Assembly: GCA_017634675.1 (NCBI GenBank)
Contig: JAGBMX010000033.1
Location: forward strand, 1-64,000
Origin: Selenomonadaceae bacterium
Lineage (GTDB): Bacteria; Bacillota; Negativicutes; Selenomonadales; Selenomonadaceae
Reading direction: 5' to 3'
DNA length: 64,000 bases
Shown: positions 40,974 through 56,039 of the stretch, piece by piece
Numbering within the stretch: the first letter of the stretch is position 1
How the letters are laid out: every line of letters begins with the position of its first letter
The notes under the pieces: generated by a model
Seen by the model: the letters and a program-made list of their open reading frames with translations, nothing else
Told to the model about the DNA's origin: nothing
Database searches by the model: none
Translations under genes and position numbers: made by a program

Positions 40974-40993
40974 TTAAAAAACTCCTTCATACT

Positions 40994-41012: not shown

Positions 41013-41035
41013 GACGACACAAAACTCACACTCTG

Positions 41036-41225: not shown

Positions 41226-41237
41226 ACCTGCTTCAAA

Positions 41238-41314
41238 TGGTCGGAACGACAAGATTTGAACTTGCGACCTCTTCCACCCCAAGAAAGCGCTCTACCAAGC
41301 TGAGCTACGTCCCG
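41238..41314 (-). tRNA. tRNA-Pro (anticodon GGG)
   Basis: A 77-base cloverleaf with encoded CCA. The acceptor CGGGACG pairs with CGTTCCG (one G-U). The anticodon stem CTTTC/GGAAG (one G-U) holds the loop TTGGGGT, giving anticodon GGG. The T arm contains GTTCAAATC. The strong promoter TTGACA lies upstream and a terminator directly downstream, so it is a single-gene unit. Confidence 0.95.
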
Positions 41315-41325
41315 ACTACCTGTGT

Positions 41326-41355
41326 AGTCTATCACATTTTTCGCTATACTGTCAA
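41326..41355 (-). promoter_or_regulatory. Promoter of tRNA-Pro
   Basis: On the minus strand a perfect TTGACA (41350-41355) and TAGACT (41326-41331) are 18 bases apart, 11 bases before the tRNA 5' end. Confidence 0.65.
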
Positions 41356-41409
41356 GCAAAATCTTATAATTTTGGTAATTTTATTGTATTCTGTGAACAT
41401 AAATCGAAG

Positions 41410-41438
41410 TTGCAAGCGAATAACGATTATGATAAAAT
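41410..41438 (+). promoter_or_regulatory. Promoter of the cobalamin gene block
   Basis: TTGCAA (41410-41415) and TAAAAT (41433-41438) are 17 bases apart, 41 bases before the cobM ATG. The leader is too short for a cobalamin riboswitch and no B12-box-like sequence is seen. Confidence 0.65.
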
Positions 41439-41479
41439 ATCTTAAAATATACTAAGACGTTACAAGCGAGGCGAATGTG

Positions 41480-42235
41480 ATGGTTCATTTTGTAGGGGCA
41501 GGCCCCGGCGACCCGGAGCTTATTACAAAAAAGGGCGCAAGATTTCTCGAAGAAGCGGACGTTGTCATATACGCAGGTTCGCTTGTAAATCCGCGGTTGC
41601 TTGATTTATGCAAGAACGACGCTAAAATTTACAATTCGGCTTCAATGACTCTTGACGAAGTGCTTGAAGTTATATATGATGCAGAAGCGCATAATTTTAT
41701 GACGGTTAGACTTCATACCGGCGATCCTTCTTTATATGGAGCAATAGGGGAGCAAATGGACGCTTTGGAAAAAAAAGGTATTTCCTATGACGTAATTCCC
41801 GGAGTCAGTTCCTTCTTAGCGGCGGCGGCATCACTAAAGAAAGAATATACCCTTCCCGGAGTTTCCCAAACGGTTATAATTACACGACAGGGAAAAAGGA
41901 CAGCCGTTCCTGAGGAAGAAAGCTTAAAATCCTTGGCGGCGCATAAATCCACCATGTGCATTTTCCTTTCCGTACACATGATTGATGATGTCGTAAGGGA
42001 ATTGACGGTGGGAGGTTACGACGAGGACACCCCCGTTGCGGTGGTTGAAAAAGCGTCGTGGGAAGATGAAAAAATAATTCGAGGAACACTTAAAACAATC
42101 GGCAAAGAGATAAAAGAAGCGGGGATAACCAAAACCGCCATGATAGTCGTAAGTCCGTGCTTGGAATCGGAATATGAGCTCTCGCGCCTTTATGCGGCGG
42201 ATTTTTCCCACGGATTCCGCGAGGCGAAAAAATGA
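41480..42235 (+). CDS. cobM: Precorrin-4/cobalt-precorrin-4 C11-methyltransferase
   Basis: A SAM-dependent methyltransferase of corrin-ring synthesis (CbiF in the anaerobic route). The 251 residues of the tetrapyrrole methylase fold start VHFVGAGPGDPELITKKG. They include HTGDPSLYGAIGEQ (near 80) and IPGVSSFLAAAA (near 110), typical of CobM/CbiF. ATG 41480 follows GAGGCG by six bases. It is first of seven tightly packed cob genes; the next gene overlaps by four bases. Confidence 0.93.
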   Translation: MVHFVGAGPGDPELITKKGARFLEEADVVIYAGSLVNPRLLDLCKNDAKIYNSASMTLDEVLEVIYDAEAHNFMTVRLHTGDPSLYGAIGEQMDALEKKGISYDVIPGVSSFLAAAASLKKEYTLPGVSQTVIITRQGKRTAVPEEESLKSLAAHKSTMCIFLSVHMIDDVVRELTVGGYDEDTPVAVVEKASWEDEKIIRGTLKTIGKEIKEAGITKTAMIVVSPCLESEYELSRLYAADFSHGFREAKK

Positions 42236-43293
42236 GATGCGCCGTTATTGCCCTTTCGAAAAACGGAGTCGAATTAGCGGGAAGGATAAAGAAATTTTTT
42301 GATTGCGACGTATATGTAAAATCTAACTATGAAGATAATGTTTCTTTCAAGGCGTTATTTTACGATAAACTGTCACTATTAACCGCAGAAATTTTTGCCG
42401 GTTACGATGCAATTATATTTGTATGCGCTGCGGGAATAGCGGTCAGGATGATTGCGCCGCATATAAAAAACAAACTTGAAGACCCTGCCGTTATCGTTAT
42501 CGACGAAACTGGAAAATATGCGGTAAGTTTGCTTTCAGGGCATATAGGCGGCGCAAATTTGCTTTCGAAACGTTTGGCTGAAATTATAAGCGCAGAAGCG
42601 GTAATAACAACAGCAACGGACTCTCATGAGATTGCTGCGCCGGATTTGGTCGCGTCTGTTTTAGCTTTAACGCCCTATCCCAAAAGTGAAATTTTGAATT
42701 TTAACTCTTTATTATTAAAAAATGGGAAAATTTCTTATTTTATCGACTCGAATTTAACTCATAAGGATTTTTATAAAAGGAAATTGAAGGATTTTAACAT
42801 AGAGGCTAAGGTCGTAGACGAGTTAAATCCCCAAAATAACGAGCATAGCGTGTTCATAACGGATAATCCCCGGGAGAAAAAGAACGCGCTGTATTTATCG
42901 CCGCAAAAATTGGTTGCGGGAGTAGGTTGCCGCAAAGGAGTCGCAAAGGAAACAATACTTAACGCCATATCGGACGCAACGAAAAAAATAGGCAGGGATA
43001 TATCCTTTATAGATTTAATCGCAAGCGTTGAGGCAAAAAAAGACGAGGCGGGAATTTTGGGAGCCGCAGCGTCGCTTAATATAGACGCTGAGTTTTTTTC
43101 CAACGAGATATTGCGGGAAAAAATCGAACAGTATAAATTAAAGGAATCGGCGTTTGTAAAGGAGCATATCGGCGTTGGAAACGCATCTGAGGCGGCGGCG
43201 CTCGCCGCTGTGAAAAAAGGCAAGTTTGCCCTTGAAAAGACTGTATATGAGAAAGTGACGGTGGCGCTTGTATGGGAAAAATTACCGTTGTAG
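42232..43293 (+). CDS. cbiG: Cobalt-precorrin-5A hydrolase
   Basis: It opens the lactone ring of cobalt-precorrin-5A and releases acetaldehyde, a step specific to the anaerobic pathway. The 353 residues cover the N-terminal domain (CAAGIAVRMIAPHI near 64-77 and SGHIGGANLLSKRLA), a linker, and a C-terminal domain starting VAGVGCRKGVAKETI and ending in a NASEAAALAA motif. Its presence marks the anaerobic route. It overlaps cobJ by 22 bases. Confidence 0.93.
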   Translation: MRCAVIALSKNGVELAGRIKKFFDCDVYVKSNYEDNVSFKALFYDKLSLLTAEIFAGYDAIIFVCAAGIAVRMIAPHIKNKLEDPAVIVIDETGKYAVSLLSGHIGGANLLSKRLAEIISAEAVITTATDSHEIAAPDLVASVLALTPYPKSEILNFNSLLLKNGKISYFIDSNLTHKDFYKRKLKDFNIEAKVVDELNPQNNEHSVFITDNPREKKNALYLSPQKLVAGVGCRKGVAKETILNAISDATKKIGRDISFIDLIASVEAKKDEAGILGAAASLNIDAEFFSNEILREKIEQYKLKESAFVKEHIGVGNASEAAALAAVKKGKFALEKTVYEKVTVALVWEKLPL

Positions 43294-44024
43294 GCATGGG
43301 TCCCGGGAGCGATCTTGAGATGACACCTCGAGTGAAAAACGCAATACTTACCGCCGATATAATCGTTGGGTATAAGACGTATTTATCCATTATAAAAGAG
43401 ATTGTAGGAGATAAGGAAACGGTAGGCACGGGTATGACCGGCGAGGTGGAACGGTGCAAAAAGGCGATTGAGCTTGCTTCTAGCGGGAAAAACGTCGCTG
43501 TGGTGTCTAGCGGCGATGCAGGAGTTTACGGCATGGCGGGACTTGTGTTGGAACTTTTGCTTGAGGTTGGTAAGGAAAATCGTCCAGAAATTGAAATCGT
43601 TTCGGGCATATCTTCGGTTTTCACGGCCGCCGCCGTTTTGGGCGCACCGCTTATGAACGATTTTGCCGTTATAAGTTTAAGCGACTTGCTTACTCCTTGG
43701 GAAGTCGTGGAAAAACGACTTAACGCTGCGGCTGCAGGGGATTTTGTTATCGCTCTTTATAATCCCAAAAGTAAGAGCAGGAAAAACAATATAGAGATTG
43801 CAAGGGACATAATTTTAAATCAGAGAAGCGGCAAAACCCCGGTCGGCATAGTCTGGAACGCAGGAAGAAACGGAGAAAAAAAGGTTATAACAACGCTTGA
43901 AAATTTTACAGTGGAAGATATATCCATGTTTTCCCTTGTGATAATCGGAAACAGCGCAACTTATGAACAAGACGGGTTTATGATAACGCCAAGGGGATAC
44001 CGTCAAAAGGGGATGTTTGATTGA
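43272..44024 (+). CDS. cobJ: Precorrin-3B/cobalt-precorrin-3 C17-methyltransferase
   Basis: A ring-contracting methyltransferase (CbiH in the anaerobic pathway). The 250 residues begin GKITVVGMGPGSDLEMTP. They contain the VVSSGDAGVYGMAGL motif (near 75-90), a PLMNDFAVISLSDLLTPW segment and the C-terminal IIGNSATY region. It starts inside cbiG and overlaps cobK by four bases. Confidence 0.94.
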   Translation: MGKITVVGMGPGSDLEMTPRVKNAILTADIIVGYKTYLSIIKEIVGDKETVGTGMTGEVERCKKAIELASSGKNVAVVSSGDAGVYGMAGLVLELLLEVGKENRPEIEIVSGISSVFTAAAVLGAPLMNDFAVISLSDLLTPWEVVEKRLNAAAAGDFVIALYNPKSKSRKNNIEIARDIILNQRSGKTPVGIVWNAGRNGEKKVITTLENFTVEDISMFSLVIIGNSATYEQDGFMITPRGYRQKGMFD

Positions 44025-44785
44025 TATTGCTCTTAGCGGGTACAAAGGACGGCAGGGAATTGGGAGAAGCTCTTTCAAATCAGAATTATCGGCTTGCGAT
44101 TTCGGTGACAAGCGATTACGGGAAAAAACTGATAAAAGAGAACGAAAACCTTATTATAAACGATAAGCCAATGGATTTAGACAAACTTATCGCATATATT
44201 AAGGCAAACGAGATAAAACTCCTGATAGACGCAAGCCACCCTTACGCAGAAATCGCATCGAAAAACGCCATAACCGCCGCAGAGAAGCTTGGCATTCCAT
44301 ATATCCGTTACGAAAGGGAAATGGCGACAACAGACTACGATAAAATATATTTGGCTAAAGATTATGAAGAAGCGGCAAAAATAGCTTCGGATTTTGGCGA
44401 TAACATCTTTTTTGCCACAGGCTCAAAAAGCGCAAAATTCTTCTTTGATTCGCCTTTTTTAAAGAATAAGCGGCTGATTTTCAGGGTACTTCCGTCTGCA
44501 AACGTCTTAGCAAAATTAAACGAAGTGGGAATTTTAGCCAAAAACATAGTGGCGCTTGAAGGTCCTTTTACGGAGGAATTGAACCGGGCGTTGTTTAGAG
44601 CCTACGAAGCCGACGCAATAGTAACGAAGGACGGCGGAACCGTTGGGGGCGCAGACACAAAGATAGAGGCGGCGAAAAGTTTGGATTTGCCCGTGGTGAT
44701 TATAGAGCGACCTAAGATAAATTATCCCAATATAGCGTATAAATTTGACGATGTTTATAAGTTTATACAAAATTATATTGTGTAG
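44021..44785 (+). CDS. cobK: Precorrin-6A/cobalt-precorrin-6A reductase
   Basis: An NADPH- or NADH-dependent ring reductase (CbiJ). The 254 residues begin ILLLAGTKDGRELGEAL, include DASHPYAEIASKNA (near 71-84) and YIRYERE, and end with KDGGTVGGADTKIEAA. It starts at TTG with AAGGGGA seven bases upstream. The stop is followed by a 41-base gap before cbiC. Confidence 0.92.
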   Translation: MILLLAGTKDGRELGEALSNQNYRLAISVTSDYGKKLIKENENLIINDKPMDLDKLIAYIKANEIKLLIDASHPYAEIASKNAITAAEKLGIPYIRYEREMATTDYDKIYLAKDYEEAAKIASDFGDNIFFATGSKSAKFFFDSPFLKNKRLIFRVLPSANVLAKLNEVGILAKNIVALEGPFTEELNRALFRAYEADAIVTKDGGTVGGADTKIEAAKSLDLPVVIIERPKINYPNIAYKFDDVYKFIQNYIV

Positions 44786-44826
44786 ATAGATGAGAAAGAA
44801 ATCTTTGAAAAATGAGGCGATTGTCG

Positions 44827-45450
44827 GTGGAAATCACGAAGAATCCTATGGAAATAGAAAAAAAAAGCATGGAAATAATACGCCCGTACGTTAAAGATGT
44901 GTTTACGGACGAAGCGGAGTTAAAAGTCGCTTCAAGGATAATTCATGCGGCGGGAGATACGGATTACGCAAAAGTTATCCGTATACATAAAGCCGCTGTT
45001 AAATCCGCAAAAAATGCGATTTTTTTGGGGAAAAACGTGTATACTGATGTGGAAATGGTGCGCACGGGGATAAACAAGAAAAAACTCGCAGCTTACGGCG
45101 GGGAGGTTTTATGTAAAATCGCCGACGAAGAAGTCGCAAAAGAAGCCAAAGAGTGCGAAATAACCCGTTCTATGGCAGCAATGAGGAATTTCAAAGGAGA
45201 ACTTGCGGGCGCCATAGTCGCTATAGGCAATGCGCCGACGGCTCTTTTTGAGATGTTGCGGTTAGTAGAGGAAGAAAACATTTTGCCCGCAGTTATAATA
45301 GGCGTTCCCGTAGGTTTTGTGGGAGCGGCGGAGTCTAAAGCCCTGTTGATGAAAAACAAAAAAGTTCCGTATATAACGGTTGAAGGAACAAAAGGCGGCA
45401 GTTCCATTGCAGTTGCGGCTTTTAACGCTATTTTGTATCAGATGAACTAA
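44827..45450 (+). CDS. cbiC: Precorrin-8X/cobalt-precorrin-8 methylmutase
   Basis: It moves the C11 methyl group to C12 (CobH/CbiC). It has 207 residues. Motifs seen are IIHAAGDTDYAK (near 40-52), TDVEMVRTGI and a GNAPTALFEMLRL segment, with VPVGFVGAAESK. I chose GTG 44827 (EITKNPMEIEKKS, the usual opening), nine bases after GAGG. An in-frame ATG five codons upstream lies on top of that ribosome site. Confidence 0.93.
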   Translation: MEITKNPMEIEKKSMEIIRPYVKDVFTDEAELKVASRIIHAAGDTDYAKVIRIHKAAVKSAKNAIFLGKNVYTDVEMVRTGINKKKLAAYGGEVLCKIADEEVAKEAKECEITRSMAAMRNFKGELAGAIVAIGNAPTALFEMLRLVEEENILPAVIIGVPVGFVGAAESKALLMKNKKVPYITVEGTKGGSSIAVAAFNAILYQMN

Positions 45451-45480
45451 ACCTTAAACCAAACAAGGAGAGAGAAGAAG

Positions 45481-46842
45481 TTGCAAAATGCGCCTAGAGT
45501 GGTGATAGCGGGAACGGCAAGCGGCGCGGGTAAGACGACCGTGACGGCGGGGATATTGGCGGCGCTTAAAAGAAGGAAGTTTGCCGTCGCATCTTTTAAG
45601 GTGGGTCCTGACTACATAGATCCCGGTTATCACGAGATAATAAGCGGCGGAAGTTGCCATAATTTAGACAGTTGGATAACAGGCAAAGAGGAAATTTCGC
45701 GGCTTTTTTTTAGATCGGCAAAAAATGCGGATATTTCCGTTATCGAAGGAGTTATGGGACTTTACGACGGGGGAAAGCGGGGAATAAGCTCTACGGCGGA
45801 GATTGCAAAATTGATTGATGCGCCGATAATTTTGGCAATAGACGCAAAATCCATGGGAGCTTCGGCAGCGGCGATCGCTTTAGGCTTTCGAGATTATGAC
45901 AAAAATGTGAATTTTGCGGGAGTAATTTTAAACCGCTTGGGTTCTGATAGTCACGAACAGATGATTAGAGAAGCTATGGACAAGGCGGATATAAAAGTTT
46001 TGGGCGCAATAAGGCGAAACGAAAATCTGCGCCTGCCGGAGCGCCATTTGGGATTGGTTCCCGCTAAAGAGACAAAAAGCGAAGTGGATTTGGCGAAAAT
46101 TTTTTCTTCAATCGAAAATCAGATGGACATGGATGAAATTGTCGCCATAGCAAAGAGCGCAAAACCCATAGCAAATTTTAATCTTGCCGAAGGCAAAAAT
46201 TCGGTAAAAGACATAAAGATAGCCGTAGCAAAAGACAACGCTTTTTCTTTTTACTATGAGGACAGTTTGTCGGTGTTGGAAGAATTCGGAGCGGAAATTA
46301 TAAAGTTTAGTCCTATTTATGATGAAAAAATACCCGATTGCCACGGCATAATTTTAGGCGGCGGGTACCCGGAAATGTTCGCTAAAAAGTTGGAAGAAAA
46401 CGCTTCCATGCGAAATTCGATAAAAAAAGCCGCCGCAGAAGGCATCCCTATTTACGCAGAGTGCGGCGGGTTTATGTATCTTATGGAAAGCATTGAGGAC
46501 TTATCGGGGAAAAATTTTGATATGACGGGTGTAATTCCGTCTAAGGCAAAAATGGAGCAAAAATTGCAAACCGTGGGTTATGTGGAAGCCGAGCAGCTTC
46601 AAGATACCATACTTGGAGAAAGGGGATTAAAATTTAGAGGGCATGAGTTCCATTTTTCCGTAGAGGAAGGCGGGGGCAAATCCTTTGGTTTTATGATTGA
46701 GAAAATCCGCACCGGCGCAAAATATCCAGCGGGATTTGCGCAAAAAAACATCTTGGGGTCTTATCTTCATTTGCATTTCAGAGGTTCGAAGGTGGCGGCG
46801 AAAAATTTTGTGAAATCTTGCAGGAAATTTAAAAATAGGTGA
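45481..46842 (+). CDS. cbiA: Cobyrinate a,c-diamide synthase
   Basis: A glutamine-dependent amidase acting on the a and c carboxyls (CobB/CbiA). The 453 residues have an N-terminal ATP-binding domain (GTASGAGKTTVTAGI near 11-25, VGPDYIDPGYHE near 41) and a C-terminal triad-type glutaminase domain with Cys in IYAECGGFMYL (near 325) and His in GSYLHLHF. The TTG start lies 10 bases after AAGGAG. Confidence 0.94.
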   Translation: MQNAPRVVIAGTASGAGKTTVTAGILAALKRRKFAVASFKVGPDYIDPGYHEIISGGSCHNLDSWITGKEEISRLFFRSAKNADISVIEGVMGLYDGGKRGISSTAEIAKLIDAPIILAIDAKSMGASAAAIALGFRDYDKNVNFAGVILNRLGSDSHEQMIREAMDKADIKVLGAIRRNENLRLPERHLGLVPAKETKSEVDLAKIFSSIENQMDMDEIVAIAKSAKPIANFNLAEGKNSVKDIKIAVAKDNAFSFYYEDSLSVLEEFGAEIIKFSPIYDEKIPDCHGIILGGGYPEMFAKKLEENASMRNSIKKAAAEGIPIYAECGGFMYLMESIEDLSGKNFDMTGVIPSKAKMEQKLQTVGYVEAEQLQDTILGERGLKFRGHEFHFSVEEGGGKSFGFMIEKIRTGAKYPAGFAQKNILGSYLHLHFRGSKVAAKNFVKSCRKFKNR

Positions 46843-46845
46843 ATT

Positions 46846-47424
46846 ATGGGAAAAATCGTTTTGGTAACGGGCGGCGCAAGAAGCGGTAAGAGTGAATTTG
46901 CGGAAAAATACGCAAAAAAATACGGAAAAACAGTATCATATATTGCGACTGCGGAAATTTTCGACGATGAGATGAAAAATCGAGTAAAACTTCACCAAAA
47001 ACGCCGTCCGAGTGAATGGAAAACTTATGAGTATCCTAAAAACGCTCATATAGCCATTGAAGAAGCGGGAAAACATTCGGACTTCATTCTCTTTGATTGC
47101 CTTACCGTATATCTCAGCAACTTGATACTCTCCATGGAGGATAATATCGACGACGCAAAAATTGATAACGCATTTGATTTATTGCTGGCGTCGGCAAAAA
47201 AAATCCCCGGCGCAACGGTTTTTGTAACAAACGAGGTTGGCGCAGGAATTGTGCCTGAGAACAAATTGGCGAGACTTTACAGGGATATAGCGGGGAGAAT
47301 GAATCAGAAATTTGCGTCGGAAGCGGACGAGGTTTATTTGGTAGTCAGCGGTTGCGCCGTGAATTTAAAGAACTCTGACAAAACGAGCTTAGAATTCCAC
47401 CATCTCAACCTTCACGATGTCTGA
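46846..47424 (+). CDS. cobU: Adenosylcobinamide kinase/guanylyltransferase
   Basis: It phosphorylates adenosylcobinamide and attaches GMP. The 192 residues contain a P-loop GGARSGKSEFAE (near 9-20), the catalytic-His segment NRVKLHQKRRP (near 45-55) and TNEVGAGIVPENKLARLYRD (near 125-145). Relatives usually end soon after the VVSGxxxxLK motif. Here the frame continues with about 17 extra residues (NSDKTSLEF...). The next gene is an unrelated minus-strand insertion, so the tail may be read-through into inserted DNA. Confidence 0.9.
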   Translation: MGKIVLVTGGARSGKSEFAEKYAKKYGKTVSYIATAEIFDDEMKNRVKLHQKRRPSEWKTYEYPKNAHIAIEEAGKHSDFILFDCLTVYLSNLILSMEDNIDDAKIDNAFDLLLASAKKIPGATVFVTNEVGAGIVPENKLARLYRDIAGRMNQKFASEADEVYLVVSGCAVNLKNSDKTSLEFHHLNLHDV

Positions 47425-47451
47425 ATTGATACTTGCCTTTTCTATGTCCGG

Positions 47452-49980
47452 TTAACCTTTGATATAGGGCACAATCACATCGTAGAACTTTTTCGTCCAG
47501 TTAGCGTGGAAGTTTGCCATCTGGAACCAATCGGTCTCATTTTCGATGCTGACGTTATTCAACTGAACGAATACCTTAGACGACTTAATGTCGTCGCCAC
47601 GGTTCCATTGTAGCGTTATCCCTAGCGCTGATTCGATTTCTGTTTTATGAGTGTAAAGACTATCGAAGGCGTCCTTGTTTTCCTGTTTGTTTCCCCTGCC
47701 AAAGACAACCTCTGCTCTTGCTGCATCATAGTTTGCTACGCAACAGAGATAGAATCCACCAATACCAAAGAATCCATTAATCCAATTGTCCCTCGATGGA
47801 TTAACATTAGAGAAGGAGCCATCCTCCCCATGCGCCTTTTGGATAATTGGAAGCGCATACGTCCAGTATTTTCTCCGAAGCTCATGACGTCTGCTATGAT
47901 CATATGAATTAGATTCATTTTCATCACGCAGGTAAAATACCAAGTCTGTCGGATTTTCACCATATAGTTTGAATAGACGACTCAGAACGGACAGCTTACC
48001 CTGTGTACTGGTATTTGTCCACACATAGATACCATCGCCGATTTCCAACCGCTTTGTGAACGTATCCGGATTAATACTGAAATGAAGTGCAATATTTTCA
48101 TCATCAGACATAGCAAGCTTTGTAATGATGGCCTTGTCCTCTGCATACAGAATTTGTATAACCTTCTGGAACATTTCAACCCAGCTCGTTACCGGCTGTT
48201 CTGTATTTTTAAAGGTAAATTTTGCAATCAGACGTCCGGTTAGTTCGCCCTCGTCCTCAAGAGTATAAGTTTCAAGCTGTTTTCCTTCCGGTTTATATTG
48301 TGTGACAGGCGCTGCCCAGATAGTCAGCGCTCTGCCCATAAGATATTCGCTGCGCTCTTTAAGCTCAGCTAGTGTCCATTTGTCTTTCTTGGCAATCCAA
48401 GTGTTCATGCGAATACCGCTGTCATCAAAACCCTTCGTCATGGTTTTCTTTTCGGTGAAAGATATATTGCTGTATTTTGAGTTATATGCCGTCAGCGTAA
48501 GATTAGCTATTCTGTGCAGCCAGTTTTCGTGGATCTGTTCGTAATCGTCTCCCAATTCCTTCTGCCATACTGGTGTTAGATGCTGAGGCATTATATGTTC
48601 AATCGAATAAGTGCCGTCATCGTAGTGACGGTACACATCTTTGTCTTCTAAAGTGTCGAAGTTTTCAAAACGCTCAAGAATGTAAATCTTATTCTTGCTG
48701 TTCATCAAGTAGACAGGACGGTTTTCAAATGCCGTCTTAAACTCCGCATCATCCGGGAAGCGGGCGCGTTCTTTCTTTGACAACAGTGCATATTTGAACT
48801 TCTCAACATAATTATCCTCTGTGCCATCGTATCGGACGATATCACGATGTAGCATAAGGAAGATTTTATTCAAGGAATTTGTAGGCAAGTCACATATTGT
48901 CCTGCGGAACAGGTAGTTCTCTGTAATTAGAAAAATCTCTGCGATTTCTGCCAGCGTCAGTTTATTTTCATTATAGAGGCGCAACACCTCAAGGAAGAAT
49001 GGCCTTGTAACCGTAGTCTCCAAACGGTTTAGCCTGTCGATGCACGCATCGAGTGCAGAACTACCGGAATTTCCGTCGAGAAGAATCTGATAGCGTTTTG
49101 CATAGGCCAGTATATCTGCTAGCAGCGGTTCCGTCTCAATCTTTCCGAGCTCCACAAAATTCTTAAAATTGATATAGACTTTCTGCTGCTGCGGAATGGT
49201 TTGTTGCTTTACGCTTAGGTAATCCCTAATGAAAGCGCTGACATCATATTTTGTACAAACCTCAATCTTGTTCCAATATTTGTCGTAATATTTCTCCTGC
49301 TCCTTAGATGGCAAGCCCATTAGAATAAAATTTCGAATCTTATCACCTTCGCTAAGATCGAGGCCGGTAGAGTTCAAACTTTCGAAAATAAGCTGTGGAT
49401 TGTCGTCCGTATCCAGCCTGATATTTATGATTTCCAGACAACAGATTGCGTCATAGAGTTGGTCAATTGTGATTTCCTGCTTTTGAATCCGCTCATGGAA
49501 GTAATTGTAATTCACCGTCAAATTAGATTCGCGAATGTACTCCGTCGGATCGGAGAACAACTTCCCGAAAGCCGTCTGATCATTCTTGACCGGCTTTAAC
49601 TTAATCCTAGTATCCTCCGGCTTCCACTTATCAACGAGATACTCCTCTAAAATCCGCTGCTTAAGGTTAGAGGTCTTCGGCACAATTATACCTTTATCAA
49701 TCAGGTTATACATTGCAAGGAACAGCAAAGATACTGTAGTCAAGCGTTGCTGACCGTCAATGATTTGGAACTCCTCATTATGGCCATCCGGGTTATATAC
49801 TGAAACAAGACTCCCGAAAAAATGGCTCTTTTGATGTCCCTTGATTATTTTTACAAGATCATCATACAGTTGCTTGCAGTTCTCGGTCTTCCAGTCATAA
49901 TTCCTCTGATAAACCGGAATGACAAACCGCTTATCTGAACCCTCCATATATTTAACAAATTTACATTCTGAACCTTTCAT
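47452..49980 (-). CDS. GmrSD-like DUF262/DUF1524 protein (putative defence nuclease)
   Basis: The 842-residue single-chain protein has an N-terminal DUF262 domain with IPVYQRNYDW (near 21-30) and the DGQQRLTT nucleotide motif (near 76-83). A DUF1524 HNH-like domain has YSIEHIMPQH (near 456-465) and an Asn-rich segment. The C-terminal region resembles DUF4268-type tails. Relatives (GmrSD, BrxU, SspE) are NTP-dependent, often modification-specific nucleases in phage defence; that role here is inference. Codon use looks richer in G/C-ending codons than in the cob genes. It points against the cob block and separates cobU from cbiP, so it is probably acquired. AAGGAGG lies 11 bases before the ATG. 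Confidence 0.82.
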   Translation of the reverse strand: MKGSECKFVKYMEGSDKRFVIPVYQRNYDWKTENCKQLYDDLVKIIKGHQKSHFFGSLVSVYNPDGHNEEFQIIDGQQRLTTVSLLFLAMYNLIDKGIIVPKTSNLKQRILEEYLVDKWKPEDTRIKLKPVKNDQTAFGKLFSDPTEYIRESNLTVNYNYFHERIQKQEITIDQLYDAICCLEIINIRLDTDDNPQLIFESLNSTGLDLSEGDKIRNFILMGLPSKEQEKYYDKYWNKIEVCTKYDVSAFIRDYLSVKQQTIPQQQKVYINFKNFVELGKIETEPLLADILAYAKRYQILLDGNSGSSALDACIDRLNRLETTVTRPFFLEVLRLYNENKLTLAEIAEIFLITENYLFRRTICDLPTNSLNKIFLMLHRDIVRYDGTEDNYVEKFKYALLSKKERARFPDDAEFKTAFENRPVYLMNSKNKIYILERFENFDTLEDKDVYRHYDDGTYSIEHIMPQHLTPVWQKELGDDYEQIHENWLHRIANLTLTAYNSKYSNISFTEKKTMTKGFDDSGIRMNTWIAKKDKWTLAELKERSEYLMGRALTIWAAPVTQYKPEGKQLETYTLEDEGELTGRLIAKFTFKNTEQPVTSWVEMFQKVIQILYAEDKAIITKLAMSDDENIALHFSINPDTFTKRLEIGDGIYVWTNTSTQGKLSVLSRLFKLYGENPTDLVFYLRDENESNSYDHSRRHELRRKYWTYALPIIQKAHGEDGSFSNVNPSRDNWINGFFGIGGFYLCCVANYDAARAEVVFGRGNKQENKDAFDSLYTHKTEIESALGITLQWNRGDDIKSSKVFVQLNNVSIENETDWFQMANFHANWTKKFYDVIVPYIKG

Positions 49981-50104
49981 CTATCATAAGTCCTCCTTCA
50001 CCCTCAGATGTTATTATTATAAGCTCTTCGCACAATGATACACGATAGGGATAAAATTATCAAGTACTTTGCTTTCATACGTGTTAGGGAAAACATACTT
50101 TTTG

Positions 50105-50351
50105 GTTACTATTCATGGGTAGTACAACATAGTGGTGCGAAAGGTGAATTAGTGCCGTTCATGGTCGACCTCTCCACCGCTTCGCGGTCCCCCTCCCCTT
50201 TCAGGGGAGGCAACGTGAAGGTGACTTTTCTATTATATATCCGTAAAATGAGAAATCAGAGAGCCTCCCCTGAAAGGGGAGGTGCCCGAAGGGCAGAGGG
50301 GTTGACCATGAAGAGCAATATTTTTCTTTTTTTCTACCCGTGAATAGTAAC
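50105..50351 (+). mobile_element. MITE copy B (long form, 247 bp)
   Basis: The terminal inverted repeats GTTACTATTCA and TGAATAGTAAC sit inside an exact 8-bp direct repeat ACTTTTTG (50097-50104 and 50352-50359), a target duplication. There is no gene. The interior holds inverted CTCCCCTTTC/GAAAGGGGAG blocks. It is the same element as at 10125-10299 but contains 72 more bases, lying between two CTCCCCT repeats (50193-50199 and 50265-50271). The flanking spacers (49981-50104 and 50360-50452) show nothing else. Confidence 0.92.
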
Positions 50352-50452
50352 ACTTTTTGATTTTCTAAATGTGATTGAGCAGGAATTTTCTTGAAAAAAG
50401 AGAATTTGTATGTCAGAAAACGATGTAAGAATTTACGAGGCGGGCGAATTTT

Positions 50453-51958
50453 GTGGCGAAATATCTTATGATGATGGGGACAAGTTCCCATGTGGGAAAA
50501 AGCGTATTGGCGGCGGCTTTTTGCCGTATTTTTTTTCAGGACGGAAAAAAGGTTGCGCCTTTTAAAGCGCAGAATATGGCGCTTAATTCTTATGTAACCA
50601 AAACGGGAGATGAAATGGGACGAGCGCAGGTTATGCAGGCTGAGGCGGCAAAAATCGAACCGTCCGCAAATATGAATCCAGTGCTTCTAAAACCTACGGG
50701 GAACGCTTCGTCGCAGGTTATTGTAATGGGCAAACCCATAGGCACATATTCCGCTCTGGATTATCATAAAAAAATAGCGAAAGACGCTTGGGAATCGGTA
50801 AAAAAAGCTGTCAAAGAAATAGAGCGAGAATACGATACTATTGTTATTGAAGGAGCAGGTAGTCCCGCTGAAATAAATCTTAAGGCTAACGACATTGTAA
50901 ATATGAAAGTAGCAAAATACTTAAACGCTCCCGTACTGCTTATCGCAGACATTGACAGAGGCGGGGCGATAGCTTCGTTGGTGGGAACTCTTGAACTTTT
51001 GGACGAGGACGAACGGGCCCTTGTTAAAGGTTTGGTGATAAATAAGTTTCGGGGAGACGTAACGTTGCTTCAGCCCGCCGTTGATTTTTTGGAGAAAAAA
51101 ACCAAAAAGCCGGTGCTTGGAATTTTGCCATATATGGAAAATCTTTTAATAGACGACGAGGATTCCGTTTCGCTCAAAGATAAAAGGAATAACGATAATG
51201 CGTCCGTTAAAATTGCCGTGGTAAAACTCCCTAAAATCTCCAACTTTACGGATTTTGATGCGCTTTACGAATCAAAAGACGTGAATTTGATATATGCAGA
51301 AACAAAAGAACAGCTTGATGATGCGGATTTGATAATTTTGCCGGGAAGCAAGAATACCGTTGCAGATTTGTTGCATATACGAAAGAGCGGTGTTGAAGCT
51401 AAGATTTTGGAGAGAATGAAAGCGGGTATTCCACTTGTGGCGATCTGCGGCGGTTATCAGATGATAGGAAAGAAAATTGAAGACCCGTATCATATGGAAA
51501 GCGAATTGGATGAAGTTGAAGGTATTGGTATTGTGGATATGAAAACGGTTTACAGTACAAAAAAGCGTACCTTACAGGTATTCGCAAATGCGGAAAATAT
51601 GGATTTTTTAGGTATAAACAAATCATACAAAAATCTTTCCGGCTACGAAATTCACATGGGAAAAACGGAATTTTACGAAAATGTAAAACACCCTTTTATA
51701 ATCAATACGAAAGACAGTCAACGAGATGGAATTTCCAAGGAATTGATTTTAGGCACATACATTCACGGCATATTTGACAACGATGAATTTCGAGGGGATA
51801 TGTTAAACAATTTGAGAAAAAGAAAGGGATTATCGCCTATTGAATATGGCGAATCGCTAATGGCGCGTAAGGAAAAAAGTTACGATGAATTGGCAAAAGT
51901 AGTAAGGAAGAATTTGGACATGGAGAAGATAACGGAGATTATGGAATCATGTGTTTGA
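50453..51958 (+). CDS. cbiP: Cobyric acid synthase
   Basis: It amidates the b, d, e and g carboxyls of adenosylcobyrinate diamide (CobQ/CbiP). The 501 residues comprise an ATP-binding N-terminus (GTSSHVGKSVLAAAFCRIF near 9-27, KAQNMALNSYVT near 39) and a glutaminase domain (AICGGYQMIG near 327, catalytic Cys; GTYIHGIFDN near 436, His). The GTG start follows GAGGCGG. It probably once followed cobU directly; a DUF262 gene and a MITE now intervene. Confidence 0.95.
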   Translation: MAKYLMMMGTSSHVGKSVLAAAFCRIFFQDGKKVAPFKAQNMALNSYVTKTGDEMGRAQVMQAEAAKIEPSANMNPVLLKPTGNASSQVIVMGKPIGTYSALDYHKKIAKDAWESVKKAVKEIEREYDTIVIEGAGSPAEINLKANDIVNMKVAKYLNAPVLLIADIDRGGAIASLVGTLELLDEDERALVKGLVINKFRGDVTLLQPAVDFLEKKTKKPVLGILPYMENLLIDDEDSVSLKDKRNNDNASVKIAVVKLPKISNFTDFDALYESKDVNLIYAETKEQLDDADLIILPGSKNTVADLLHIRKSGVEAKILERMKAGIPLVAICGGYQMIGKKIEDPYHMESELDEVEGIGIVDMKTVYSTKKRTLQVFANAENMDFLGINKSYKNLSGYEIHMGKTEFYENVKHPFIINTKDSQRDGISKELILGTYIHGIFDNDEFRGDMLNNLRKRKGLSPIEYGESLMARKEKSYDELAKVVRKNLDMEKITEIMESCV

Positions 51959-51983
51959 GTCAAATTTTTCGCTGAGCTTGTTA

Positions 51984-52012
51984 TTGACAGGTTTATGACG
52001 ATATGTTAAGAT
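51984..52012 (+). promoter_or_regulatory. Promoter of the SRP RNA gene
   Basis: A perfect TTGACA (51984-51989) and TAAGAT (52007-52012) are 17 bases apart. The predicted start near 52019 lies about 50 bases before the closing stem of the SRP RNA, so a 5' leader or longer RNA is possible. Confidence 0.65.
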
Positions 52013-52070
52013 TGCCATGTGAGAGGCTGATAAGGGAAGATTTTGTATACCGATTGGATTTCTTTTTTGG

Positions 52071-52193
52071 GTCGGGTCATAGCGTTGGGTCTTTCGCAAT
52101 GGAGCCTTGTGAACCCCGTCAGGTCCGGAAGGAAGCAGCGGTAAGCAAATCCCTTCATGTGCCGAAAGGGTGCCTGATATGCTATGACCCGAC
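52071..52193 (+). ncRNA. ffs: Signal recognition particle RNA (small bacterial type)
   Basis: The closing stem GTCGGGTCATAGC pairs with GCTATGACCCGAC. The conserved tip GTCAGGTCCGGAAGGAAGCAGC is the Ffh-binding domain (positions about 52119-52140). The length of about 123 bases fits the short form without an Alu domain, not the roughly 270-base Bacillus form. The exact 5' end is uncertain because the promoter lies further upstream. It is directly followed by a terminator and dnaX, a common neighbour. Confidence 0.93.
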
Positions 52194-52202
52194 GTGAAAA
52201 AG

Positions 52203-52228
52203 AAAAGTCGCCTGTGGGCGGCTTTTTT
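52203..52228 (+). terminator. Terminator of the SRP RNA gene
   Basis: An AAAGTCGCC/GGCGGCTTT stem with a TGTG loop is followed by six T. It lies between the RNA and the dnaX ribosome site. Confidence 0.85.
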
Positions 52229-52249
52229 ATTTGTAAAGCGAGGGAAATT

Positions 52250-54184
52250 ATGGCGTACTTGGCGTTATATAGAAGATGGAGACCCACTTCATTAAGCGAA
52301 TTAAAAGGACAATCCCATGTGCGACGCACTCTTTCTCTCGCCATAAAAAACGGGAAAATCGGTCACGCTTACCTTTTTACGGGGCCTAGGGGCACGGGAA
52401 AAACCAGTACTGCAAAAATTTTGGCAAAAGCCTTAAATTGCCTTAATCCAAAAGACGGAGAGCCATGCGGCGTTTGCGAGTCATGCAAGAAAATAGATAG
52501 CAACGCTTCAATGGATGTGTTTGAAATAGACGCGGCATCCAACAGAGGTATCGACGAAATAAAAAATTTGCGTGAAACCGTAAAGTTTGCGCCTGTTGAC
52601 GGGAAATATAAGGTATATATCATAGATGAAGTGCATATGCTGACAACTGAGGCTTTTAATGCGCTGTTAAAGACGATAGAGGAACCGCCAGCTTTTGTGA
52701 TATTTATTCTCGCTACCACAGAGGCGCATAAGGTTCCGGCTACCATTCAATCTCGCTGCCAAAGATACGATTTTCGTCCCATTGCGGCAAATGAAATTGT
52801 GGAACGGCTCCAATTTGTGGCTAAAGAGATGAATTTTGAGGTTGAAGAAGACGCTTTTTGGCTCATAGCAAACCATGCGGACGGCGGACTTCGCGATGCG
52901 CTTTCCATTCTTGACCAATGCGCCGCAAACGCTTCGGGAAATATAAAAAAGGAAGACGTTGAAGAAGTATTGGGATTAGTTGGCGGCGTATGGATAAGAA
53001 AATTGGCGGAGGCGATTGGCAGACGCGATACTAATGAGGTTTTGACCATTGTGGATGAAATCGTAAAAAAGGGTAAGGAACTGAATCAGTTGGTTGCGGA
53101 AGTTTCCTTATTTTTACGAGGTGTGCTTATTTATCAATCGGTAGGGAGTTTTAGCGATATAAATCTGTATAGGACAAAGGAAGAAGATTTAACGACAAGC
53201 GCCGAACTTTTCACAAGCGAACGAATAATTAACGCTTTAAAAAAGTTGAACGAGCTCATTTACGCCTTGAAATGGACAGGCGCAAGGCGCATTATGACGG
53301 AAGTGCAGTTTATTTCCCTATGTACGGAAGAAAGCGCAAATGTAACGGGTAATGAAGCAAATAACGCTTATAACGACGAAAGAATAAAGCGACTTGAAGC
53401 CACCGTTGCAGCCCTTAGCGCCAAACTTGCTAATGTTTCTGCTAATAATACAGCTTCAACCGTAGCGGTAGAAAGAAAAGCTGAAAGGCGACAAACCGCA
53501 GATGAACCAAAAAAAATTATCGATAAGCCCCAAAAAGAGACTTTATCAACCACAGTAATAAAAAATACAGAAAATAAAGATACCGTTGCCAAGAAAAAAA
53601 CTGATGGTGAAAAAATTACGCCGATTAACGCAGAAAGCGGTCAAAAACTATGGGAGCAGGTTCTTGATAAGTTTGTTGAAAACGGTAAGAAAAACGTGGT
53701 TGCCTGCTTAAAGCAGGGTATTCCCGTTAGTTTGACGGAAAACAGCATTGCCGTTGGCTTTAAAAGCGTGATGATGGCTAATCTTGCGAATAAACTCTAC
53801 AAAAAACAAGTGGAAACTATTCTTTCCGAGCTTACGGGTAGAAATATCGCTTTAACGACTGAAACTGTTCAAGCGGGAGCATCAACGCCCAGTGTTAAAA
53901 CCGTTGCAGAAAAATCTGCGCCGAAAACGCAAAAAAGCGAAGAATTAACAGGCGAAGGATCAGATAATTTGAAACTGGCGACAAAAGTATTTGGCAGTAA
54001 TTTTATTGACGCGCCGAATAAAAAACTGAAACAAATAACGATTTCGCCCGAAACAAGTCCTGATAATATGTCGGAAAATGTTCGGGCGAATGCGTCGAAA
54101 AACATTCCTGTCACCGACGAATTTGACGATTTTGATGCGCCGCCTCCGCCGGGGGACGAAGATTTTGTGGATTTTGAAATGTAA
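52250..54184 (+). CDS. dnaX: DNA polymerase III subunit gamma/tau
   Basis: The clamp-loader ATPase. The 644 residues start MAYLALYRRWRP. The AAA+ domain has GPRGTGKTSTAKILAKALNC (near 44-63), a zinc site with Cys in CGVCESC, VYIIDEVHML, and an ATTEAHKVPATIQSRCQRY sensor region. Domain III and a variable, low-complexity tau region (about 390-640) with an acidic, Pro-rich end (PPPPGDEDFVDFEM) follow. No A-rich frameshift slippery site is obvious. The start has AGGGAAATT upstream. Confidence 0.95.
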   Translation: MAYLALYRRWRPTSLSELKGQSHVRRTLSLAIKNGKIGHAYLFTGPRGTGKTSTAKILAKALNCLNPKDGEPCGVCESCKKIDSNASMDVFEIDAASNRGIDEIKNLRETVKFAPVDGKYKVYIIDEVHMLTTEAFNALLKTIEEPPAFVIFILATTEAHKVPATIQSRCQRYDFRPIAANEIVERLQFVAKEMNFEVEEDAFWLIANHADGGLRDALSILDQCAANASGNIKKEDVEEVLGLVGGVWIRKLAEAIGRRDTNEVLTIVDEIVKKGKELNQLVAEVSLFLRGVLIYQSVGSFSDINLYRTKEEDLTTSAELFTSERIINALKKLNELIYALKWTGARRIMTEVQFISLCTEESANVTGNEANNAYNDERIKRLEATVAALSAKLANVSANNTASTVAVERKAERRQTADEPKKIIDKPQKETLSTTVIKNTENKDTVAKKKTDGEKITPINAESGQKLWEQVLDKFVENGKKNVVACLKQGIPVSLTENSIAVGFKSVMMANLANKLYKKQVETILSELTGRNIALTTETVQAGASTPSVKTVAEKSAPKTQKSEELTGEGSDNLKLATKVFGSNFIDAPNKKLKQITISPETSPDNMSENVRANASKNIPVTDEFDDFDAPPPPGDEDFVDFEM

Positions 54185-54205
54185 TCAGCGATATAGGAGG
54201 AAGTT

Positions 54206-55915
54206 ATGAGAGCAACTAATTTATATGCGCCGACACTTCGCGAGATGCCGGCAGACGCGGAACTTATAAGCCATAAACTTATGCTTAGAGGCGGCATGAT
54301 GAGGAAATCCGCCAACGGTATGTATACTTTTTTACCGCTGGGATGGCGGGTTATTAAGAAAATTGAAGCTATTATAAGAGAGGAAATGGATAAAGCCGGC
54401 GGACAGGAAATTATGATGCCTATTTTGCAACCTTCCGAACTCTGGGAAGAAAGCGGTCGGTGGGCGGCTTACGGCAAGGAAATGATGCGAGTCAAGGATC
54501 GACACGATCACTCCTATTCGCTTGGTCCCACTCATGAAGAGATGATGACTGCCCTTGTTAGAAATGAGGTGCGCTCGTACAAACAGCTTCCTCTGATGCT
54601 TTATCAAATTCAGGACAAATTCAGAGACGAGCGTCGTCCCCGTTTTGGACTCATGCGCAGCCGCGAATTTATCATGAAAGATTTGTATTCTTTCGATAAA
54701 GATGTTGACGGTATGAATATATCATACGATAAAATGTATAAGGCGTACCAAAACATTTTTACCCGTATGGGGCTTACATTTAGGCCAGTGGAAGCGGACA
54801 ACGGCGCTATAGGCGGCGGTCATTCTCACGAATTTACCGCGCTGACGGAAGCCGGAGAATCGGTTATCGCTTGTTGTTCTAAATGCGACTTTGCCGCAAG
54901 CGATGAAAAGGCTGAATTAAAAGCGATTGTCGCGGCCGACGAAGTTGAGGAAGAACTAAAAAAAGTATCCACGCCGGACGCTCATACAATCGACCTTTTG
55001 GTTAAATATTTAAATATTCCAATCGAAAAAACCATTAAAGCCGTGGCTTATCAAACCGAAACAGACGAACTTGTCCTCGTTTTTGTACGCGGCGATCATG
55101 ACGTAAACGAAGCAAAAGTATTGCATTTCTTGGAAAACGCCAGGGAACTTCGTATGGCGGACGAAGAAGCAATCACAAACGCCGGAGGTTGCCCCGGTTT
55201 TATGAGTCCTATCGGTATAAAAAAAGGTACGAAGATTTTGGTTGATTTGACCGCTATGGAGATGAAAAACGCCGTTTCCGGCGCAAATGAGGTTGATACT
55301 CATTATACCGGCGTTAATCCGAAGCGAGATTTTAAAGATGTAATAGTGGCGGACATCCGCATGGTTAAAGAAGGAGATCCTTGCCCCCGTTGCGGCGCGC
55401 CCCTTTCTCTTACCAGAGGTATTGAAGTCGGGCAGGTTTTTACCTTGGGCGAAAAATACAGCGCATCTATGAACGCAACATTCTTAGATGAAAACGGCAA
55501 GGAAAAACCGCTTGTAATGGGTTCTTACGGCATAGGCGTAGGACGCACCATGGCGGCGATTATAGAGCAGCTTCACGATGACAACGGCATTATCTGGCCC
55601 GTAAGCGTTGCGCCTTTTGAAGTTGCGGTGGTGCCTGTAAACGCAAAAAATGCGGAGCAACTAAAGACCGCCGAAAACATATATAAAGAATTAAAATCGA
55701 AGCATATCGACGTTCTTTTAGACGATAGAATCGAACGCGCCGGCGTAAAGTTCAAGGATGCGGATTTAATCGGATATCCTCTTCGCATTACGGTAGGGCC
55801 TAAAGCAGTAGAAGAAGGAATTGTGGAAATAAAAATCAGAAAGAACGGCGAAATAAAGTTGTTAAAGCAGGACAAATACGTAGACGAAATTATTAACTTG
55901 TTGAAAGAATTGTGA
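54206..55915 (+). CDS. proS: Proline-tRNA ligase
   Basis: The 569-residue bacterial-type ProRS is a class II core with the INS editing domain inserted (about residues 225-390, with the FVRGDHDVNEAK segment). RYADLRPR-like motifs (FRDERRPRFGLMRSREFIMKD near 137-157) and TLGEKYSASMNATFLDENG before motif 3 (GSYGIGVGRT) are seen. AGGAGG lies before the ATG. It does not share a pathway with dnaX, only position. Confidence 0.97.
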   Translation: MRATNLYAPTLREMPADAELISHKLMLRGGMMRKSANGMYTFLPLGWRVIKKIEAIIREEMDKAGGQEIMMPILQPSELWEESGRWAAYGKEMMRVKDRHDHSYSLGPTHEEMMTALVRNEVRSYKQLPLMLYQIQDKFRDERRPRFGLMRSREFIMKDLYSFDKDVDGMNISYDKMYKAYQNIFTRMGLTFRPVEADNGAIGGGHSHEFTALTEAGESVIACCSKCDFAASDEKAELKAIVAADEVEEELKKVSTPDAHTIDLLVKYLNIPIEKTIKAVAYQTETDELVLVFVRGDHDVNEAKVLHFLENARELRMADEEAITNAGGCPGFMSPIGIKKGTKILVDLTAMEMKNAVSGANEVDTHYTGVNPKRDFKDVIVADIRMVKEGDPCPRCGAPLSLTRGIEVGQVFTLGEKYSASMNATFLDENGKEKPLVMGSYGIGVGRTMAAIIEQLHDDNGIIWPVSVAPFEVAVVPVNAKNAEQLKTAENIYKELKSKHIDVLLDDRIERAGVKFKDADLIGYPLRITVGPKAVEEGIVEIKIRKNGEIKLLKQDKYVDEIINLLKEL

Positions 55916-55949
55916 TTTAAAAGACAAATTAATAACGTTATAGTACGAG

Positions 55950-56039
55950 ATTATTAAAATTTTTTCTTTTCTCTTTTTCTTTGCTTCTTTCTTTTTCTCT
56001 TTTCTTTTTTATAAAAAAGAAAAGAGAAAAAGAAAGAAG
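55950..56039 (+). repeat. Polypyrimidine/polypurine palindrome, copy 9
   Basis: A leader is followed by perfect 27-bp arms (55984-56010 and 56013-56039) around AT. The outer ends CTTC/GAAG match copies 6 and 8, but the inner part (CTCTTTTC/GAAAAGAG) differs on both arms. It lies 28 bases before the nicotinate phosphoribosyltransferase start. Confidence 0.87.

What the first reader, a model, noticed from the sequence alone, without database searches (positions are those of the whole stretch)
47425..50452. Putative GmrSD-like defence gene and a MITE inserted in the cobalamin block
cobM through cobU run plus-strand with overlaps or tiny gaps, then a minus-strand 842-aa DUF262/DUF1524 protein and a MITE separate cobU from cbiP. 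The protein has DGQQRLTT and an HNH-like EHIMPQ motif plus a C-terminal extension, as in single-chain GmrSD/BrxU/SspE-type restriction factors. No methylase, BREX or Ssp genes are adjacent, so it would be a solitary defence gene. Such placement in a metabolic operon marks a possible small insertion hotspot.
Basis: partly seen in the sequence, partly recalled or inferred. Interest (0 to 1): 0.5.

Follow-up and report, generated by a model that had tools for sequence, protein, structure and literature searches.

The report
Transplanted DNA-cutting gene in vitamin operon
A bacterial gene for a probable DNA-cutting defence protein has landed inside a vitamin B12 gene cluster, and the protein carries an unannotated part resembling SeqA, a reader of methyl marks on adenine, which suggests a testable new kind of target for this enzyme family.

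Summary
47452-49980(-) encodes an 842-aa GmrSD_N + GmrSD_C + DUF4268 protein; 50105-50351 is a MITE with an 8-bp target duplication; both separate cobU from cbiP. A same-genus genome has cobU and cbiP 17 bp apart (empty site), and 22 of 29 examined cbiP loci keep cobU-cbiP without cargo: a lineage-specific insertion, no sign of a hotspot. The gene is foreign: single copy, unusual codon use, relatives of 66-97% identity at 71 loci, mostly Firmicutes by record title. In many of the closest it directly follows hsdR of a type I RM operon or hamB of Hachiman; three loci have a Fic gene after it. The window keeps only a Fic 3' tail, which now encodes the end of CobU. So it is an orphaned module of defence operons. 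The MITE is an abundant local repeat and a separate event. Not found in the papers I could search: the 'C-terminal extension' holds a SeqA-like DNA-binding domain (residues ~588-684; structure Z 9.6; HHalign 89-96%) before DUF4268. SeqA binds hemimethylated GATC, so I propose an NTP-regulated nuclease that senses adenine methylation rather than cytosine modification. Defence nuclease: likely. Adenine reading: plausible, untested.

The parts
46846..47424 (+). cobU; residues from about 176 to 192 are encoded by imported DNA (antisense of a Fic gene tail)
   Evidence: Pfam CobU; homology to relatives mostly stops at residue 175/176; DNA homology to congener ends at 47369
47373..47452 (-). relic of the 3' end of a Fic-family gene (TGHRKGKYQFRHREG*) and the bases just after it
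   Evidence: 77-bp match, 76.6%, E 1.8e-10, to L095 9966-10042, across the end of its Fic gene (8907-10010); L086 Fic tail TGHGKGKYRFRQQ; Fic Pfam in L086 and L095
47452..49980 (-). 842-aa GmrSD-like protein gene (DUF262 + DUF1524 + SeqA-like + DUF4268)
49324..49938 (-). GmrSD_N / DUF262 domain, residues 15-219, with D75-G-Q-Q-R79
   Evidence: conservation
48337..48759 (-). GmrSD_C / DUF1524 HNH nuclease domain, residues 408-548, EHIMP 461-465, N493, N500
   Evidence: conservation
47929..48219 (-). SeqA-like DNA-binding domain, residues about 588-684, loop T655-N656-T-S658-T659-x-x-K662
   Evidence: against:
47461..47880 (-). DUF4268, residues 701-840; model weakly resembles type III secretion chaperone/YbjN folds
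   Evidence: Pfam (best Z 8.2, rmsd 4.3 A: weak)
49981..49999 (-). ribosome-binding-site stretch, the upstream limit of DNA similarity to 27 of 71 loci
50105..50351 (.). MITE, 247 bp, terminal inverted repeats GTTACTATTCAyGGGTAG
50097..50104 (.). target-site duplication ACTTTTTG, left copy
50352..50359 (.). target-site duplication ACTTTTTG, right copy
50453..51958 (+). cbiP (cobyric acid synthase), gene beyond the insertion

Best explanation
The insertion is a fragment of a horizontally moving defence locus: a single-chain GmrSD-type nuclease gene that in many close relatives ends type I RM (hsdMSR) or Hachiman operons, here cut loose with only the tail of a following Fic gene and pasted between cobU and cbiP. 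A member of an abundant local MITE family lies beside it and came by its own transposition. Proposed action: the DUF262 domain binds and hydrolyses NTP, the SeqA-like domain binds DNA and reads N6-methyladenine or hemimethylation, and the HNH domain then nicks or cuts DNA judged foreign, in the manner of DndI, SspE and GmrSD. Shown here: lineage-specific insertion, foreign origin, orphaning, domain make-up, intact motifs, purifying selection, SeqA-like fold (predicted model) and sequence similarity. Inferred: nuclease activity, defence role, adenine-methylation reading, expression.
For: Empty site in same-genus G002; no copy in G001 or G002; 22 of 29 cbiP loci, G002 included, have cobU at -8 to +63 bp and no cargo. 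71 loci with relatives; 26 of 71 hold Hsd and/or Ham genes in the stretch held; of 54 loci with a same-strand gene less than 300 bp upstream, 12 have HsdR by clustering (11 by Pfam HSDR_N and PADLOC) and 7 HamB. Fic relic. Codon-usage divergence 0.164 against 0.044-0.097 for 12 neighbours and at most 0.053 in 300 equal-size samples. dN/dS 0.02-0.04 against 13 close copies. Core fold: DndI Z 17.8 (rmsd 9.2 A), SspE 17.6 (19.2 A), BrxU 10.4 (5.9 A). SeqA: four SeqA entries rank 1-4, Z 9.0-9.6, rmsd 2.4-2.5 A over 91-93 residues; HHalign 89.1%, P 2.3e-6; 96.5%, P 8.7e-10 with 15 diverse sequences and 95.5% with 9 divergent ones only; 50 column shuffles each at most 1.4%; Pfam SeqA matched by 12 of 36 members, best E 0.0026. 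At the positions of SeqA N150, T153, K156: N 35/36, T 36/36, K 36/36.
Against: At the SeqA N152 position stands S in 28 of 36 (N in 5, D in 3), and R116-T117-R118 are N629-I630-A631, so SeqA's GATC specificity need not carry over. Of the divergent homologues compared, only L. reuteri keeps the loop whole. The window's own sequence gives no Pfam SeqA match. In the PDB profile search two unrelated proteins score ahead of the first SeqA chain and one ties with it; the profile of the whole C-terminal half finds no SeqA at all; with other settings HHalign gives only 41.3%. No wet evidence of activity. 45 of 71 loci show no Hsd or Ham gene in the stretch held, many of them cut short; among 32 loci with stretches of 14 kb or more, 9 have an Hsd gene. 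GC of the gene equals the window's. dS is near saturation.
Confidence: 0.6

Rival explanations
1. An ordinary type IV enzyme: it restricts DNA with modified cytosine through DUF262, as GmrSD and BrxU do, and the SeqA-like domain only gives general DNA binding without reading methylation.
For: DUF262 and DUF1524 with DGQQR and EHxxP intact; GmrSD and BrxU act on modified cytosine (passages of PMC10952713, and PMC12707154); SeqA R116-T117-R118 not kept.
Against: The SeqA N150 position is N in 35 of 36 and the T153 and K156 positions are invariant in the close family, which a non-specific binder would not obviously need; a frequent partner is an adenine-methylating type I system (the adenine target of HsdM is established knowledge).
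Confidence: 0.3
2. A partner-dependent effector: like DndI with phosphorothioation, it attacks DNA lacking the host mark and is held back by the mark of its type I system; without partner it is silent or relies on other adenine methylases of this genome.
For: In many close relatives it lies 7 bp behind hsdR or hamB or overlaps hsdR; DndI is its best structural match and behaves so (abstract and passages of PMC11662687); the genome has N6_Mtase and HSDR_N genes elsewhere.
Against: It is intact and under purifying selection also where no partner is seen; its partners are several unrelated HsdR types or Hachiman, so no one mark is shared.
Confidence: 0.3
3. A decaying stowaway with no present function: cut off from its operon promoter, inserted by chance and neutral.
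For: Upstream similarity stops 17-19 bp before the start codon, so the operon promoter is probably gone; promoter-like sites in the region are no more than chance (7 found, 6.9 expected).
Against: 842 codons open, motifs kept, dN/dS 0.02-0.04.
Confidence: 0.15

Closest known systems
GmrSD family fusions with DUF4268 (Machnicka et al. 2015, PMC4619093; passages read)
   Same: DUF262 + DUF1524 + DUF4268; co-location with type I RM genes; frequent horizontal transfer
   Different: The passages I saw call DUF4268 a domain of unknown function and name no SeqA-like domain; here a SeqA-like domain lies between DUF1524 and DUF4268, and the gene is isolated in a metabolic operon
RloF of type I RM loci (Miller et al. 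2005, as cited in PMC4619093)
   Same: DUF262 gene linked to hsd genes
   Different: RloF lies between hsdS and hsdR; many relatives here follow hsdR or hamB, and the window copy has no hsd neighbour
DndI (9jfl; PMC11662687, abstract and passages)
   Same: Best whole-core structural match (E 1e-14; Z 17.8, rmsd 9.2 A); DGQQR NTPase and HNH nickase layout
   Different: 596 aa, match covers only residues 8-559 here, so no counterpart of the SeqA-like domain or DUF4268; reads phosphorothioate; no dnd genes beside this gene
BrxU (7p9k) and SspE (6jiv, 7drs)
   Same: Same two-domain core
   Different: Matches end at residue 561; BREX or SspABCD genes not adjacent here
SeqA C-terminal DNA-binding domain (1lrr, 3sk7, 1iu3, 3fmt)
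   Same: Fold, sequence profile and N-x-(N/S/D)-T-x-x-K loop
   Different: R116-T117-R118 not kept; fused to a nuclease. SeqA's N-terminal oligomerisation domain was not looked for
PADLOC Orf5, HEC-06 and PDC-S11 models
   Same: Orf5 E 4e-170 and HEC-06 over residues 14-557; PDC-S11 over DUF4268
   Different: None of the 25 models shown covers the whole protein (33 matched)

Membership tests
GmrSD family | DUF262 (GmrSD_N) with I/V-DGQQR | tested here: met
   Pfam E 1.3e-33; IIDGQQR; D75-Q78 invariant in 51 sequences, R79 at 90% or more
GmrSD family | DUF1524 (GmrSD_C) with E/D-H-N-N | tested here: met
   Pfam E 1.1e-26; N493 invariant, E461, H462 and N500 at 90% or more of 51 sequences; that N493 and N500 are the two N of the motif is by reading
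GmrSD family | Cleavage of DNA with modified (glucosylated) cytosine | not testable with these tools
   Needs purified protein and phage DNA
BrxU / SspE / DndI | Adjacent BREX, sspABCD or dndBCDE genes | tested here: not met
   Neighbours are cobalamin genes and dnaX
Type I RM accessory gene (RloF-like) | Location inside an hsd locus | tested here: not met
   No hsd gene at 41981-55980 (WIN empty); an Hsd gene is near in 24 of 71 relatives' loci
SeqA DNA-binding domain | SeqA-C fold | tested here: met
   Predicted model only: Z 9.6, rmsd 2.4 A, 92 residues to 1lrr
SeqA DNA-binding domain | GATC-contacting Asn150 and Asn152 | tested here: inconclusive
   Asn150 position kept (35/36), Asn152 position mostly Ser (28/36); role from a passage of PMC6225831
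SeqA DNA-binding domain | Arg116-Thr117-Arg118 contacts | tested here: not met
   N629-I630-A631 in the window (alignment, counts)
SeqA DNA-binding domain | Recognised by the Pfam SeqA model | tested here: not met
   Window domain: no family; 12 of 36 members match weakly, best E 0.0026; the curated cut-off is not shown in that table
SeqA protein | N-terminal oligomerisation domain | not tested
   -
MITE | Terminal inverted repeats, target duplication, no transposase, many copies | tested here: met
   11 of 18 copies with both flanks have exact 8-bp duplications, 2 more 7 of 8; a 247-bp element cannot hold a transposase gene

The most novel reading that the evidence does not exclude
A widespread branch of GmrSD nucleases are adenine-methylation readers: a SeqA-like domain senses N6-methyladenine or the hemimethylated state left by type I or other adenine methylases, and gates an NTP-driven HNH nuclease, so that one portable gene can be plugged behind unrelated RM, Hachiman or orphan loci and borrow whichever adenine mark the host makes.
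Probability: 0.35. Interest if true: 0.72.

Novelty: new variant of a known kind. Interest (0 to 1): 0.5.

Why it matters
In the passages I read, enzymes with the DUF262-DUF1524 core are described as readers of modified cytosine (GmrSD, BrxU) or phosphorothioate (SspE, DndI). A SeqA-like module in a common, fast-moving branch offers a concrete, testable reason why these genes often travel with adenine-methylating type I systems, and adds a possible further kind of mark. The locus itself is a clear case of a defence gene cut loose from its operon and parked in a housekeeping operon.

Tried and rejected
Hotspot between cobU and cbiP: no cargo in any of the 22 loci with the two genes together; 7 of the 29 loci had no cobU within the 1.5 kb held and their gene order was not followed. 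The 29 are the best-scoring relatives' loci, of 56 genomes with a match among 60 searched; the rest were not examined. The site in same-genus G001 was not seen, as its only cbiP matches are weak.

MITE as vehicle of the gene: rejected, it has its own target duplication and lies 124 bp from the gene, with the same element at many other places. Phage or plasmid vehicle: 1 locus in viral contigs; the 40 plasmid (E up to 1e-30) and 2 phage (E up to 1e-20) records with a match are all under 60% identity, so no vehicle of the close copies was found.

Splitting from a type I locus in the same genome: the three HsdR genes found are of other kinds; the closest is 75% identical over 703 residues to the HsdR of L109, and none is more than about 26% identical to the L086 type. 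L162-L165, fetched for this, were not analysed further. Origin of 50000-50104 and 50360-50442: no convincing match in the loci held (best E 0.73), none elsewhere in the genome for 49981-50104; the right border of the insertion stays unresolved. A 7-bp repeat GAATTTA near both borders was seen by eye and not tested. DUF4268 as a PD-(D/E)XK nuclease: my guess, not supported; matches are weak and to secretion-chaperone/YbjN folds. No SeqA relative in the phage records.
Full report
What is there. The window is part of contig C16 of a 2.6-Mb, 157-contig genome, 85% complete. Cobalamin genes run on the plus strand from 41477 to cobU (ends 47424), then cbiP starts at 50453. Between them lie a minus-strand ORF of 842 codons and a 247-bp element. 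The ORF has three Pfam domains over their cut-offs: GmrSD_N 15-219, GmrSD_C 408-548 and DUF4268 701-840. PADLOC gives Orf5 (4e-170), HEC-06 and, for the C-terminus, PDC-S11. It is single-copy in its genome as held.

The insertion. In same-genus genome G002, cobU ends and cbiP begins 17 bp later; window DNA matches it up to 47369 and again from 50443. Neither same-genus genome, G001 or G002, has the gene; G001's own site was not seen. Window and G002 are not very close (CbiP 72% identical), so the insertion is lineage-specific rather than shown to be recent. Of 29 cbiP loci looked at, G002 included, 22 have cobU directly before cbiP at -8 to +63 bp and no cargo; the other 7 show no cobU in the 1.5 kb held. 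CobU homology in relatives mostly ends at residue 175 or 176; of two longer alignments one (L059) runs through a stop and one (L066) reaches residue 186. Window CobU has 192 residues. The extra tail is read from imported DNA: 47373-47449 matches, antisense, the DNA across the end of a Fic gene in L095 (77 bp, 76.6%, E 1.8e-10), and in reverse reads TGHRKGKYQFRHREG* beside TGHGKGKYRFRQQ at the end of the Fic protein of L086 (Fic). In L086 and L095 the Fic gene (about 1.1 kb) follows the GmrSD gene, so nearly all of it has been lost here. On the other side, similarity stops at 49997-49999, just above the ribosome-binding site, in 27 of 71 loci; what lies between there and 50443, MITE aside, has no convincing match in what I hold.

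The MITE. Ends GTTACTATTCAyGGGTAG, 50105-50351, flanked by ACTTTTTG on both sides. Of 30 copies fetched (L002-L031), 18 gave both ends and both flanks under my strict end pattern; 11 have exact 8-bp duplications, 2 have 7 of 8, 5 have none. The end sequence occurs 212 times in the genome (up to 2 mismatches) against 0 for the reversed pattern. It is a local, abundant repeat that came by itself.

Where the gene comes from. A scan of one genome for each of 84,980 species gave 71 loci at 66-97% identity (best segment), mostly titled as Firmicutes (Lachnospiraceae, other Clostridia, Anaerococcus, Fenollaria, Veillonellaceae), with a few titled Akkermansia, planctomycete, Anaerolineaceae, Bacteroidota or Fusobacterium (MAG labels may be wrong). 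A member of the same family as the window, G027, has a 90% identical copy at another place in its genome. Codon use differs from 12 neighbours (0.164 against 0.044-0.097; 300 random samples up to 0.053), though GC does not. Against 13 close copies dN is 0.045-0.058 and dN/dS 0.02-0.04, dS being near saturation; a fourteenth pair gave no valid dS.

Partners. In many of the closest copies the gene starts 7 bp behind hsdR of an hsdMSR operon (overlapping in L086), or behind hamB of Hachiman, which in 5 of 7 loci itself has hsdR upstream. Of 70 loci where the gene was placed, 54 have a same-strand gene within 300 bp upstream, 13 have none, 3 lie at a contig edge; of the 54, 12 are HsdR by clustering (11 by Pfam or PADLOC) and 7 HamB. 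Over the stretch held, Hsd genes occur in 24 of 71 loci, Ham genes in 7, either in 26; among 32 loci with 14 kb or more, 9 have an Hsd gene. So the orphan state is common too. The HsdR partners are several unrelated kinds. More distant plasmid homologues lie by methylase genes in Ruegeria, Rhodococcus and Roseicitreum, but not in L. reuteri, Aerococcus, Pediococcus or Planktothrix as annotated, and one phage copy is near a DNA methyltransferase. The type I association of GmrSD genes is known (PMC4619093, passages).

The hidden domain. AlphaFold2 on 51 sequences (mean pLDDT 82, pTM 0.62) gives a core like DndI, SspE and BrxU (large rmsd for the first two) and, at 588-682, a match to SeqA's DNA-binding domain (Z 8.8). 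A separate model of residues 557-842 puts four SeqA entries first, Z 9.0-9.6, rmsd 2.4-2.5 A over 91-93 residues. Sequence agrees, with limits: a profile of 36 family members finds four SeqA chains among 7 hits at E 0.25-0.76, behind two unrelated proteins and level with a third, while a profile of the whole C-terminal half finds none; Pfam SeqA is the most frequent family, 12 of 36 members, best E 0.0026, but not the window's own sequence. Profile against profile, six SeqA sequences score 89.1%, P 2.3e-6, 41.3% with other settings. With 15 diverse sequences it is 96.5%, P 8.7e-10, and with the 9 divergent ones alone 95.5%; 50 column shuffles of each reach 1.4% at most, and segments of the protein outside the domain 1.7%. 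In SeqA, R116, T117, R118, N150 and N152 touch GATC (PMC6225831, passage citing Fujikawa 2004). The close family keeps N at the N150 place (35/36), T at T153 and K at K156 (36/36), has S, N or D at N152 (28, 5, 3) and lacks R116-T117-R118. Of the divergent homologues, L. reuteri keeps the loop whole (TNNNT); Rhodococcus, Roseicitreum and the phage copy keep parts, Aerococcus, Pediococcus and L034 little or none, and Ruegeria and Planktothrix align poorly there.

Novelty. DUF4268 occurs in 2 papers of the library. Papers with SeqA and DUF262, or SeqA and GmrSD: one, PMC12707154, where the passage with SeqA uses it as a fluorescent reporter. A search for SeqA-like domain, SeqA domain or SeqA fold with restriction endonuclease or methyladenine gave 312 papers; none of the 15 listed holds a SeqA phrase. 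Most subscription papers and preprints are not held, so this is not proof of absence.

How it likely works. By analogy to DndI and SspE (PMC11662687, abstract and passages; PMC10952713, passages), DUF262 hydrolyses NTP and governs the HNH domain. The SeqA-like domain would add contact to adenine-methylated or hemimethylated DNA. Whether methylation triggers cutting (type IV) or spares DNA (self mark) cannot be told from sequence; the rivals listed overlap with the main reading and are not exclusive. Expression of the orphan is open: a TTGATA-17-TATCAT site lies at 50063-50035 on the right strand, but such sites are as common as chance.

Noticed in passing
window 10125-10300: Second element with the same MITE ends (2 and 1 mismatches), shorter, about 176 bp.
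   Followed up: no
G000 genome: 212 matches of the MITE end sequence, several at contig ends, so this repeat family may break the assembly; the autonomous transposon was not found (only the first 100 places are listed).
   Followed up: partly
window 52083-52182: Bacterial small SRP RNA between cbiP and dnaX (Rfam, 76.6 bits).
   Followed up: no
L032 / L099 (G027:C5:85065-87557): The close copy in G027 matches only to residue 831 and then runs into a SEC-C motif tail (NDPCPCGSGKKYKNCC), an apparent fusion; genes of the same SEC-C cluster lie in 8 loci, overlapping or following the gene.
   Followed up: partly
L088, L093, L116: A different upstream partner: HsdR, then a gene of cluster c18, then the GmrSD gene 22 bp on; a YgjP-like metallopeptidase domain is found among the upstream genes, its assignment to c18 is by guess.
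   Followed up: no
window 46846-47424: CobU here ends in a foreign tail of about 17 residues; the effect on the enzyme is unknown.
   Followed up: partly
window 50453: cbiP is now separated from its operon by 3 kb with an antisense gene and a MITE; no cobalamin riboswitch reached the Rfam gathering score at 39000-54000.
   Followed up: partly
window 47300-50600: More terminator-like hairpins than chance (9 found, 2.7 expected in shuffles), some within cbiP; not examined.
   Followed up: no
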